Shown here piece by piece: positions 38,482 to 41,886 of a stretch of DNA of 64,000 nucleotides. Positions within the stretch are counted from its first letter, which is position 1, and each line of letters opens with the position of its first letter. The DNA is from Qipengyuania gelatinilytica (lineage in GTDB: Bacteria; Pseudomonadota; Alphaproteobacteria; Sphingomonadales; Sphingomonadaceae): contig NZ_CP081294.1 of NCBI RefSeq assembly GCF_019711315.1, positions 248,001 to 312,000 of the forward strand. The letters run 5' to 3'. A program made the position numbers and the translations under genes. The notes below the pieces were generated by a model. It did not search any database, was not told the origin of the DNA, and was given only the letters and a program-made list of their open reading frames with translations.

Positions 38482-39864
38482 ATGGCTCTGGATATCCTCA
38501 TCGTCGACGACGAACGCGACATTCGCGAACTGGTAGCCGGGGTCTTGAGCGACGAGGGCTACGAATGCCGGACGGCAGCCGACAGTGTGTCCGCGCTCGA
38601 TGCAGTGGACGAGAAGCGGCCGAGCCTCGTACTGCTCGACGTCTGGCTGCACGGCAGCCCGATGGATGGGCTCGAAGTCCTCGATGCGATCAAATTGCGC
38701 GAGCCGGAACTGCCCGTCATCATCTTCTCGGGTCACGGCAATATCGACACGGCCGTCTCCGCCGTCAGCCGCGGTGCAATGGATTTCATCGAGAAGCCGT
38801 TCGAGGCGGAGCGCTTGCTGCACCTGGTGGAACGCGCGACCGAAACGGAAAGCCTGCGCCGCGAGAACTCGCGCTTGCGCGAGAGAACCAATGAGAGCGG
38901 CGAGTTCACCGGCAATTCGGCTGCCATCAACAATGTCCGCGCGACGTTGAAGCGCGTGGCATCGACCGGTAGCCGCGTCTTGATCTCCGGCCCTGCGGGG
39001 TCCGGCAAGGAAGTCGCCGCACGCCTGCTGCACAGCTGGTCGACACGCGGCGACAAGCCCTTCGTCACCGTCAATTCGGCCCGGATCACCCCGGAACGCT
39101 TCGAAGAAGAGCTCTTCGGTGAAGAGGCGGATGGCAAGTTGGTCCGGCCGGGCCTCCTGGAAACCGCCGACGGCGGCACGCTCTATCTCGACGAAGTAGC
39201 CGACATGCCGATGTCGACGCAGGCTCGTATCCTGCGTGTCCTCACCGAACAAAGCTTCGTGAGGGTAGGGGGCAATCGTCAGGTTGGGGTCGATGTCCGC
39301 GTGATCTCTTCAACGGCCCGCGACCTTGCCAAGGAGATGGAGGAGAAGAATTTCCGCGAGGACTTGTTCTACCGCCTCAACGTCGTGCCGGTCGAGATCC
39401 CGTCGCTTGCCGAGAGGCGCGACGACATACCGGCCCTGGCCGAATATTTCTTTGCTCGCTATGCAACGGAGCAGGGCTTGCGACCGCCGAAGATCAGCGA
39501 AGAAGCCATGGCTGCACTCCAGGCCTATGACTGGCCCGGCAATGTGCGCCAGCTCAGGAATGTCGTCGAGCGGACGATCATCCTGACCCCGCGCGACCAG
39601 CTGGACACGGTCGAAGCCGAGATGCTTTCCGAAGAGGTTACTGGCGGCAAGGTGTCCGGTACCGGGGGCATGGCGGCATTGATGGGGGCCCCCTTGCGGG
39701 AAGCGCGCGAGAGCTTCGAACGCGAATACCTCGCGATCCAGATCCGCCGCTTTTCCGGCAATATCTCCAAGACGGCGAGCTTCATCGGAATGGAGCGTTC
39801 GGCGCTGCACCGGAAGCTCAAACTACTCGGAATGGCCGAACGAAAAGGCAGCGAGCGCAAGTAA
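38482..39864 (+). CDS. ntrX: Response regulator NtrX
   Basis: Partner of NtrY. The 460-residue protein has a receiver with Asp53 ([14 protein letters not shown]), a AAA+ domain with Walker A GPAGSGKE and Walker [11 protein letters not shown], and a Fis-like HTH ([20 protein letters not shown]). The loop where NtrC has GAFTGA instead reads [15 protein letters not shown], so direct sigma-54 activation is doubtful; this is known for NtrX proteins. It lies 2 nt after ntrY and 166 nt before hfq. Confidence 0.95.
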
Positions 39865-40030
39865 CGCGACAAGCATAGGCCACAGGCCTGTCAGATTTAT
39901 TTTATTGCTAACAAGTGTCTTACACGGCACATTGCGTTTCAAATCCGGATGGAAATCTGGTGCCCGGACGCGGTGGTGGCGTCCAGATCGTCGTCCTCGA
40001 ACGGGGCGGCCAACAACAGGAGACACAACG

Positions 40031-40567
40031 ATGTCTGGCGAACGCACTCTCTCGGCACGCCCGCGTCCAGCGAAAGAAGCAGCCCCCAAGGGCAAGGCGC
40101 CCAGCCTGCAGGACGCATTCCTCAACTTGCTGCGCAAGGAGAAGGCGCCGGTAACGGTGTTTCTTGTGAAGGGCGTAAAGCTCCAGGGTATCGTCACCTG
40201 GTTCGATAATTTCTCGATCCTGCTGCGCCGCGATGGACAGTCGCAGCTGGTCTACAAGCATGCCGTCAGTACGATAATGCCCGGTCAGCCGATCGATGCC
40301 GGCCAATTTGAAAGCCAGGGCTCGAACGCGAAGCAACGGCTGCTGCAGGATGTTTTCCTTGGCCGGGTCCGTCAGGCAGAGGCGCAGGTCACGATGTTCC
40401 TGGTCAATGGCGTCATGCTGCAAGGCAAGATTGCTGCCTATGATCTCTTCTGCATGCTGCTCGAACGCGATGGTTACGTGCAGCTCGCTTACAAGCACGC
40501 TGTATCGACGATCCAGCCTGCAACGCCGGTCGACCTGAGCGAAGACTGGGACGAGGACGACAACTGA
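40031..40567 (+). CDS. hfq: Hfq RNA chaperone with two tandem Sm domains
   Basis: Hfq binds small RNAs and mRNAs. Normal Hfq is about 70-100 residues with one Sm domain; this 178-residue protein has two. Domain 1 (about 25-84) has [21 protein letters not shown], and YKHAVST; domain 2 (about 103-162) has LLQDVFL, VMLQG and YKHAVST. Residues equivalent to the proximal-face Gln8, Asp9 and Tyr55-Lys56-His57 of E. coli are kept in both, but the Lys31 counterpart (K50) is Met129 in domain 2. Start at 40031 is fixed by AGGAGA. The C-terminus is acidic (EDWDEDDN). Stop overlaps the presumed hflX start. Confidence 0.95.
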
Positions 40568-41886
40568 GTTTCGACGACGACCTTCTGGGCGAAGTCTCGC
40601 GCGGTGCGCGGGCCCTCGTCATTTGCCCCGACATCCGCGGGCAAACCTATGATCTCGATGCAGACAGCCGTCTGAGCGAGGCCGAGGGGCTTGCGCTCGC
40701 CATCGGTATCGAGATCGAGGACAGCTTCGTGCTGCCGGTTCGCGATGTGAAACCGAACCTCTTGTTCGGCGCCGGCCAGGTCGAGAATATCCGGATTGCG
40801 TGCGAACAGCACGAGGCTGAGCTCGTAGTTGTCGACGGTGCGCTCAGTCCGATCCAGCAACGCAATCTGGAAGAGAAACTTTCACGTAAGGTCATCGACC
40901 GGACGGGCCTGATTCTGGAAATCTTCGGGGAACGTGCGGCGACCGCAGAAGGTCGCCTGCAGGTCGAACTCGCCCATCTGGATTATCAGCAGAGCCGGCT
41001 TGTCCGTAGCTGGACCCACCTCGAGCGTCAGCGCGGCGGCTTCGGCTTCCTTGGCGGGCCGGGTGAGACGCAGATCGAGGCCGACCGCCGGATGATCCGG
41101 CAGCGCATGGGCAGGCTGCGCAAGGAACTCGAACAAGTACGCAAGACGCGCGGGCTGCATCGTGAACGGCGCGAGCGGGCACCGTGGCCGGTTGTCGCCT
41201 TGGTCGGTTATACGAATGCCGGCAAGTCGACCCTGTTCAACCGGCTGACCGGCGCCGAAGTCATGGCCGAGGACCTGCTGTTCGCAACGCTCGATCCGAC
41301 GATGCGGGCCATTTCGCTGCCCGGCGTCGAGAAAGCCATCTTGTCGGATACAGTCGGCTTTATCTCGGATTTGCCGACCCAGCTCGTCGCTGCTTTTCGC
41401 GCTACGCTTGAAGAGGTGACGGCTGCCGACGTCATCTGCCACGTCAGGGATATTTCCAATCCCTCGGCAGAGGCACAAAAGCTTCAGGTCCTGCGGGTGC
41501 TGAAAGACCTGGACGTCATCGACGGCGAAGATGGCGCATCAAGCATTCCGATCCTCGAAGTCTGGAACAAGTGGGACTTGCTGGACGAAGAACGAGCAGC
41601 GGACCTGCAACCACAGGTCGAGACCAGCGAGGATATCGTTCTTACCTCGGCGTTGACCGGGGAAGGCGTTCCGGACTTGCTCGAACGCCTGGGTGATATG
41701 CTGACTGCCAAGGCTTCGGTTCAGGAATTCAAGCTGCCGGTCAGTGACGGCCGACGGATTGCATGGCTTCATGCCCACGGCGAAATTCTGTCGGAAGAAG
41801 ATGCCGGCGAGGGCGAAGGCGGGCCGATGCGGAGGTTCCTGGTGAGGTTGAATCCCAAGGAACTCGGCCAGTTCGAAACGCTATGA
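40564..41886 (+). CDS. hflX: Ribosome-associated GTPase HflX, apparent CTG start
   Basis: HflX rescues or splits stalled ribosomes. The family N-terminal domain begins in frame right after hfq ([18 protein letters not shown], then VICPDIRG), followed by a glycine-rich FGAGQVENI segment, the coiled [13 protein letters not shown] region and the G domain ([12 protein letters not shown], about 213-224; DTVGFI; NKWD). Between 40567 and 40729 the frame has no ATG, GTG or TTG, yet that stretch encodes conserved residues. The CTG at 40564 overlaps the hfq stop as CTGA and has GAGGA 6 nt upstream, so I take it as the start (440 residues). A GTG at 40729 would remove 55 residues. Confidence 0.85.

What the first reader, a model, noticed from the sequence alone, without database searches (positions are those of the whole stretch)
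40031..40567. Hfq with two fused Sm domains
The 178-residue protein carries two complete Hfq-like Sm domains joined by a 20-residue linker, both with LQD and YKHAVST motifs. Because Hfq works as a hexamer of single domains, a tandem form would give a trimer of dimers or a differentiated ring. Domain 2 has Met129 where domain 1 has Lys50 (Lys31 of E. coli, distal/side face), so the two halves look specialised. I recall tandem Hfq being mentioned for a few sphingomonads, so it may not be new, but its mechanism is little described.
Basis: partly seen in the sequence, partly recalled or inferred. Interest (0 to 1): 0.7.

Follow-up and report, generated by a model that had tools for sequence, protein, structure and literature searches.

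The report
Sphingomonad Hfq with two unequal halves
This bacterium's RNA-matchmaker protein Hfq is two ring subunits fused into one chain, a form already reported in its relatives; the two halves differ in consistent, complementary ways, which suggests a ring of three chains with two kinds of positions.

Summary
Window 40031-40567(+) encodes 178 aa with two complete Hfq Sm domains, the only Hfq found in this genome, between ntrX and hflX. It is not an artefact: 300 of 313 own-family genomes have two Hfq matches and 134 of 159 have one match spanning both domains.

Double-Sm Hfq is not new: Yang et al. 2010 (PMC2877685, passages) reported it in Zymomonas and six other Sphingomonadales, and NCBIfam has a model for it.

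Not found in print in nine searches:
(1) On a tree of neighbouring genes the fused state changes once; its sister is a single-domain lineage whose tail resembles the tandem tails.
(2) The halves are reciprocally differentiated. At E. coli position 28 domain 1 has Lys (119 of 119 unique sequences); at 31 domain 2 has Met (118 of 118); singles are Asn28/Lys31 (49 of 49). Domain 2 also has Leu41 and Gln63 and, in later branches, lost the basic rim. One fast-evolving genus, counted apart, departs from this.

Most likely three chains form one six-domain ring with alternating positions; that assembly is inferred, not shown.

The parts
40031..40567 (+). hfq, tandem form, 178 aa
40018..40022 (+). AGGAG, likely ribosome-binding site of hfq
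   Evidence: read from the sequence
40031..40102 (+). N-terminal extension, residues 1-24, mostly low-confidence in the model
   Evidence: pLDDT under 50 for residues 1-20
40103..40282 (+). Sm domain 1, residues 25-84
40169..40180 (+). Lys47 and Lys50 of domain 1 = E. coli positions 28 and 31 (Lys28 only in domain 1)
40277..40342 (+). linker M83-L104, 22 residues, near-neutral
40343..40519 (+). Sm domain 2, residues 105-163
40406..40417 (+). Asn126 and Met129 of domain 2 = E. coli positions 28 and 31
40445..40447 (+). Leu139 of domain 2 = E. coli position 41
40514..40564 (+). acidic C-tail, residues 162-178 (net charge -7)
38482..39864 (+). ntrX-like response regulator ORF upstream, conserved neighbour (name by homology as I know it, not searched)
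40564..41886 (+). hflX-like GTPase ORF downstream, conserved neighbour; probable CTG start overlapping the hfq stop (name as I know it, not searched)

Best explanation
This is the only Hfq found in a Qipengyuania-like bacterium. An in-frame duplication of a single-domain hfq, domain plus tail, within the sphingomonad family gave one chain that supplies two neighbouring positions of the Hfq ring. Three chains most likely close one ring of six Sm domains with three-fold symmetry. Domain-1 positions keep the known chaperone surfaces: uridine pocket, adenine-binding distal side, basic rim. Domain-2 positions keep the base-stacking pockets but lack Lys31 and the amide at 41 and, in the later branches, the basic rim. 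The charge lost at 31 in domain 2 is matched by a gain at 28 in domain 1. The former acidic tail of domain 1 became a near-neutral linker, so a ring would have three free acidic tails and, in later branches, three basic rim patches. Shown: the fusion, one change on the tree, consistent reciprocal substitutions, purifying selection on both halves. Inferred: the ring, the alternation, the pairing of tails with rims, and the effect on RNA.
For: Two Hfq domains in one ORF. Tree of NtrY+NtrX+HflX, hfq left out: 60 tandem and 31 single loci, one change, SH-aLRT 100 for the tandem branch and for joining single-domain L177 to it. Position 28: Lys in 119 of 119 unique domain 1; position 31: Met in 118 of 118 unique domain 2; singles Asn28 and Lys31 in 49 of 49. 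Charge at 28+31 per protein +2 in 151 of 151 tandem loci. 227 of 236 database proteins show the same pattern. Rim charge +4 in 49 of 49 singles and 119 of 119 domain 1, mean -0.47 in 118 domain 2. The distal purine site is built by two neighbouring subunits in published structures (PMC6422490, passages), so changes at 28 and 31 could act across a domain 1-domain 2 interface. Model: both domains fold, pLDDT 84.9, pTM 0.77.
Against: No oligomer was modelled and no coordinates or PAE were seen. The charge sum per protein is the same in a double ring, so it does not by itself show alternation. Genus g12 (18 unique sequences) keeps Lys28 in domain 1 but Met31 in only 56% of domain 2. Early tandem branches still have a basic domain-2 rim, and 11 of 118 unique domain 2 have the full +4, so rim asymmetry is not part of the original state.
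Confidence: 0.7

Rival explanations
1. Neutral ratchet: the ring alternates as above, but the asymmetry brings no benefit. After fusion each function was needed at only three of six positions, so domain 2 lost residues by drift and the fusion became hard to reverse. This is a rival about cause and can be true of the same ring.
For: One change on the tree and no return to a single domain among 60 tandem loci. Domain 2 varies more than domain 1 (mean identity 0.784 against 0.888). Rim loss came in steps. Genus g12 eroded further.
Against: The changes at 28, 31 and 63 are invariant or nearly so, and one is a gain in domain 1. Among close relatives dN/dS of domain 2 is as low as that of domain 1 (0.060 and 0.064 on 34 paired comparisons).
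Confidence: 0.3
2. Double ring: six chains form a ring of domain 1 stacked on a ring of domain 2, joined by the linkers.
For: A 22-residue linker would probably reach (inference). Each domain resembles a complete Hfq protomer.
Against: A ring of domain 2 alone would have no Lys at 31 or 28 and in most lineages a non-basic rim, so it would look poorly equipped for RNA. pTM 0.77 suggests a definite domain 1-domain 2 contact (inference).
Confidence: 0.12
3. Sequencing error or assembly join of two hfq copies.
For: None found.
Against: 300 of 313 own-family genomes have two matches; 134 of 159 have one spanning match; all 80 named loci have two domains.
Confidence: 0.005

Closest known systems
Zymomonas mobilis Hfq ZMO0347 and the two-Sm Hfq of six other Sphingomonadales (Yang et al. 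2010, PMC2877685; passages seen)
   Same: Two Sm-like domains in one Hfq; same order of bacteria; the paper already asks whether three proteins would form the ring
   Different: No account of domain asymmetry, origin or a single-domain sister lineage in the passages seen
NCBIfam NF010691 / PRK14091.1, RNA chaperone Hfq, 176 positions
   Same: The window protein passes it over residues 14-177 (292.8 bits, cut-off 270)
   Different: An annotation model; carries no mechanism
Single-domain alphaproteobacterial Hfq, Caulobacter crescentus 6gwk (PMC6561178; passages and section 5 seen)
   Different: Six equal one-domain subunits
Eukaryotic Sm/Lsm mixed rings (described in PMC2877685 passages; the rest recalled)
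   Same: Sm rings with different subunits at different positions
   Different: Separate genes, seven positions, much older
Engineered linked dimers of Msp1 (PMC12793716; search listing with start of abstract only)
   Same: Covalently linked pairs that assemble as trimers of dimers
   Different: Artificial, and an unrelated AAA+ protein

Membership tests
Hfq (PF17209 / TIGR02383) | Profile score of each domain above the curated cut-off | tested here: met
   PF17209 107.0 and 83.6 bits (cut-off 27); TIGR02383 101.6 and 75.2 (cut-off 61.7)
Hfq (PF17209 / TIGR02383) | Sm fold: N-terminal helix and five strands | tested here: met
   Predicted for both domains; matches to 6gwk and 5szd
Hfq (PF17209 / TIGR02383) | Proximal pocket Gln8, Phe42, Lys56, His57 | tested here: met
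   Present in both domains of the window protein; in the 118 unique domain 2, 99-100% at these positions. Position 41, also part of the pocket, is Leu in domain 2
Hfq (PF17209 / TIGR02383) | Lateral rim pocket Asn13, Arg16, Arg17, Phe39 | tested here: inconclusive
   Met by domain 1 (Asn13 and Arg16 100%, Lys or Arg at 17); not met by domain 2 of the window, which has Gly, Arg, Gln, Tyr
Hfq (PF17209 / TIGR02383) | Six-domain ring that binds RNA | not testable with these tools
   Only a single-chain model was possible
Tandem Hfq (NF010691 / PRK14091.1) | Full-length score above the cut-off | tested here: met
   292.8 bits, cut-off 270, residues 14-177
Tandem Hfq (NF010691 / PRK14091.1) | Found in Sphingomonadales | tested here: met
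   Nearest named proteins are Qipengyuania; 4 of 289 class and 17 of 398 phylum genomes pass the cut-off, all in the own family
Hfq-related, PF21979 (Hfq_1) | Matches this profile better than PF17209 | tested here: not met
   28.3 and 14.1 bits against 107.0 and 83.6

The most novel reading that the evidence does not exclude
Most of a bacterial family has replaced the uniform Hfq hexamer by a three-chain ring with two specialised kinds of position: distal charge moved from domain 2 (Lys31 lost) to domain 1 (Lys28 gained), the uridine-pocket amide kept at three positions only, and later the basic annealing rim kept at three positions, each served by one acidic tail. It would be a traceable bacterial parallel to the step from uniform to mixed Sm/Lsm rings, with an unfused sister lineage for comparison.
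Probability: 0.55. Interest if true: 0.7.

Novelty: new member of a known kind. Interest (0 to 1): 0.5.

Why it matters
Hfq is mostly studied as a ring of six equal subunits, which makes it hard to ask how many sites of each kind are needed. A natural ring with two kinds of position would allow that. With one change on the tree, a single-domain sister lineage, and an order of events (distal and proximal changes early, rim loss later), it makes the question of how uniform Sm rings become mixed rings testable in culturable bacteria. The fusion itself has been in print since 2010; the reciprocal changes are what a specialist may find new.

Tried and rejected
Artefact or separate second hfq: rejected. 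The one other-family genome with two matches (G001) has a full single-domain hfq plus a match of 38 positions on another contig.

Tandem outside the own family: none of 285 class genomes and none of 379 phylum genomes outside the own family passed the tandem cut-off. The two samples overlap, and match extents below the cut-off were printed for part of the genomes only, so a very divergent tandem is not excluded. G454 has two separate single hfq genes.

Three-domain Hfq: 5 of 236 database proteins (P0025, P0041, P0042, P0044, P0062) have three domains, but each is a lone sequence on a contig of 791-1621 bases, and no genome row has three matches. Repeat-induced assembly error is likely; not counted as real, not followed further.

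Dropped hypothesis: that turning the domain-1 tail into a linker directly caused the rim loss in domain 2. Early tandem branches keep a basic rim.

A tail-like motif [ILVM][NDE][LM] was found near the start of only 27 of 129 unique linkers, against a closely similar motif in 124 of 128 C-tails, so the tail ancestry of the linker rests on the early branches.

A domain tree on 60 columns resolved little (4 of 126 inner branches starred); domain 1 (support 83) and domain 2 (99) each fall on one side of a branch. Not used for the order of events.

Fold libraries: only pdb_via was answered; no listed chain covers both domains, which says nothing about such folds elsewhere.

Literature: 9 searches. 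Among the listings and passages seen, only PMC2877685 describes two Sm domains in Hfq. PMC9797736, PMC5770649 and PMC10992037 were seen in passages and those add nothing on the domains. Listings were capped at 12-20 papers per search and most subscription journals are not held, so 'not in print' goes no further than this. Sun et al. 2002 (PMC137430) is not held.

Dropped before counts: 4 of 95 loci left the tree for over 50% gaps (L130, L168, L186, L191). Genus g12 (18 unique sequences) is kept apart from the domain-1 and domain-2 percentages, rim charges, linker and tail figures; L128 is left out of the single-tail figures (its reading frame runs on). In one search the motif scan failed on one domain in 3 of 236 proteins, and 1 of 236 has Asn28 in domain 1; that set is the best hits of two searches, so it leans to close relatives.

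Full report
What is there. The ORF at 40031-40567(+) encodes 178 residues without internal stop, preceded by AGGAG at 40018-40022. Both halves are Hfq: PF17209 107.0 and 83.6 bits (cut-off 27), TIGR02383 101.6 and 75.2 (cut-off 61.7). The whole protein passes NCBIfam NF010691/PRK14091.1, a model of 176 positions for this double form (292.8 bits, cut-off 270). The genome, one contig of 2.83 Mb, shows no other Hfq match. The nearest named proteins are from Qipengyuania (94% identity to Q. aquimaris).

Is it real, and how wide is it? In a sample of 396 genomes of the order, 313 belong to the window's own family (83 rows of other families subtracted from 396). Of the 313, 300 have two Hfq matches and 13 have one. 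Of the other 83, 76 have one, 1 has two (G001; the second is a match of 38 positions on another contig) and 6 have none (counted by me from its rows). In 159 own-family genomes, 134 show one match spanning both domains (128 above the cut-off, 6 below), 22 have a score of the single-domain size, and 3 (67, 66 and 87% complete) have no match. For 7 of the 22 the match range fell beyond the printed list; 4 of those were shown to be single-domain from fetched DNA, while G723, G709 and G744 rest on the score alone. All 80 named loci returned carry two domains; they include Qipengyuania, Erythrobacter, Novosphingobium, Sphingobium, Blastomonas, Sphingorhabdus, Rhizorhapis and Hephaestia. One search was capped at its best 80. 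Outside the family no genome passed the tandem cut-off among 285 of the class and 379 of the phylum (overlapping samples).

Place and origin. In the fetched own-family loci single and fused genes lie at the same place, ntrY-ntrX-hfq-hflX: ntrX is found beside hfq in 22 of 22 and hflX in 21 of 22 single-domain loci, and nearly all tandem loci have both. A tree of NtrY+NtrX+HflX, with hfq left out, over 91 loci (60 tandem; 22 own-family and 9 other-family single) needs one change of state. The tandem branch has SH-aLRT 100. The tandems are nested among single-domain members of the same family, and single-domain L177 (genome G690) joins them with support 100 (quick method, no bootstrap). L177's tail, MPASPINLAEIDSKADD, differs from most single tails (such as MPASPVQLFEPEKDGDDD) and resembles tandem C-tails (L187: QPAHPINLAEIDNDDED) and the start of early linkers (L187: MPAHPIDMAEID). 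My reading: the gene including its tail was duplicated in frame, the first tail became the linker and the second stayed a tail. L025, a single from another family, also has PINL, so the resemblance is suggestive only.

The halves are not equal. Aligned to E. coli numbering (49 unique singles, 119 unique domain 1, 118 unique domain 2; genus g12 kept apart): position 28 is Asn in singles and domain 2 and Lys in domain 1, each 100%. Position 31 is Lys in singles and domain 1 and Met in domain 2, each 100%. Position 41 is Asn in 98% of singles and 100% of domain 1 and Leu in 97% of domain 2. Position 63 is Met in singles and domain 1 (100% and 98%) and Gln in 100% of domain 2. Among 236 database proteins, which lean to close relatives, 227 show K28/K31/N41 then N28/M31/L41; 5 have three domains, 3 failed the motif on one domain, and 1 has Asn28 in domain 1. 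Summed over both domains the charge at 28+31 is +2 in 151 of 151 tandem loci, the value of two single domains. Rim charge (16, 17, 19, 47) is +4 in 49 of 49 singles and 119 of 119 domain 1. In 118 domain 2 it averages -0.47, and 11 of the 118 still have +4.

Order of events. In the tree the 8 tandem rows outside the large 52-row clade (L148, L155, L187, L188, L189, L194, L212, L213) have a domain-2 rim of +3 or +4 and already carry the changes at 28, 31 and 41. None of the 44 rows inside that clade that are not of genus g12 is in the list of rims of +3 or more. So the distal and proximal changes came with or soon after the fusion and the rim reversal later. Among 16 close relatives both halves are under similar purifying selection: dN/dS 0.064 for domain 1 and 0.060 for domain 2 on the 34 of 120 pairs in which both had dS between 0.1 and 1.5. 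Over the whole set domain 2 is less conserved (mean identity 0.784 against 0.888). Genus g12 is an exception: both domains have drifted, Lys28 of domain 1 is kept in 18 of 18 and Met31 of domain 2 in 56%.

What the positions do. The uridine pocket has Gln8, Phe42, Lys56 and His57 (PMC5379935, passages), with an amine at position 41 making a base contact and Asn28 touching the second adenine site through water (PMC10628458, passages). The purine site is made by two neighbouring subunits, and the backbone of residue 31 touches a phosphate (PMC6422490, passages). The role of the Lys31 side chain is recalled, from no call. The rim pocket is Asn13, Arg16, Arg17, Ser38 and Phe39, and annealing speeds up with the number of rim arginines. 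In Caulobacter Hfq the acidic tail packs on the rim residues that correspond to 16 and 17 here, and a tail glutamate bonds to the neighbouring protomer (PMC6561178, passages and section 5). On this basis domain 1 keeps the known surfaces. Domain 2 keeps base stacking but lacks the amide at 41, Lys31 and, in later branches, the basic rim.

Function in the cell. In the sphingomonad Sphingopyxis granuli the sRNA SuhB represses thnR mRNA in an Hfq-dependent way (PMC6563040, passages), and a Zymomonas hfq mutant tolerates inhibitors less well (PMC2877685, passages). Whether the Sphingopyxis protein is of the tandem form was not checked.

Known or new. The double-Sm Hfq, its occurrence in Sphingomonadales and the question of a three-protein ring are in Yang et al. 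2010 (passages). Nine searches of an open-licence library showed no account of the reciprocal changes, the single change on the tree or the sister lineage. So this is a member of a known kind with an internal logic that I did not find described; interest is moderate.

Noticed in passing
window 40564-40567 and hfq ends of other loci: The hflX frame runs up to a CTG that overlaps the hfq stop (CTGA) and reads [20 protein letters not shown] from there; the first ATG/GTG/TTG in frame is far inside (40729). CTGA stands at the hfq stop in 119 of 244 loci looked at, repeats included. It may be a CTG start coupled to hfq translation.
   Followed up: partly
L196, L197, L217-L246 (genus code g12): A genus with small genomes has a fast-drifting tandem Hfq, down to 143-148 aa open frames in some members, with both domains eroded and very short tails.
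   Followed up: partly
database proteins P0025, P0041, P0042, P0044, P0062: Five metagenome proteins with three Sm domains in the orders 1-2-2 or 1-1-2, each on one short contig; probably assembly errors at the internal repeat.
   Followed up: partly
window 40031-40102: The N-terminal extension has an [13 protein letters not shown] stretch shared with many Erythrobacter- and Novosphingobium-type proteins but not with other tandem branches, which start near MADKVNN. Purpose unknown.
   Followed up: no
G454 (loci L247, L252): An alphaproteobacterium of another family has two separate single-domain hfq genes, one much diverged (113.1 and 71.4 bits).
   Followed up: no
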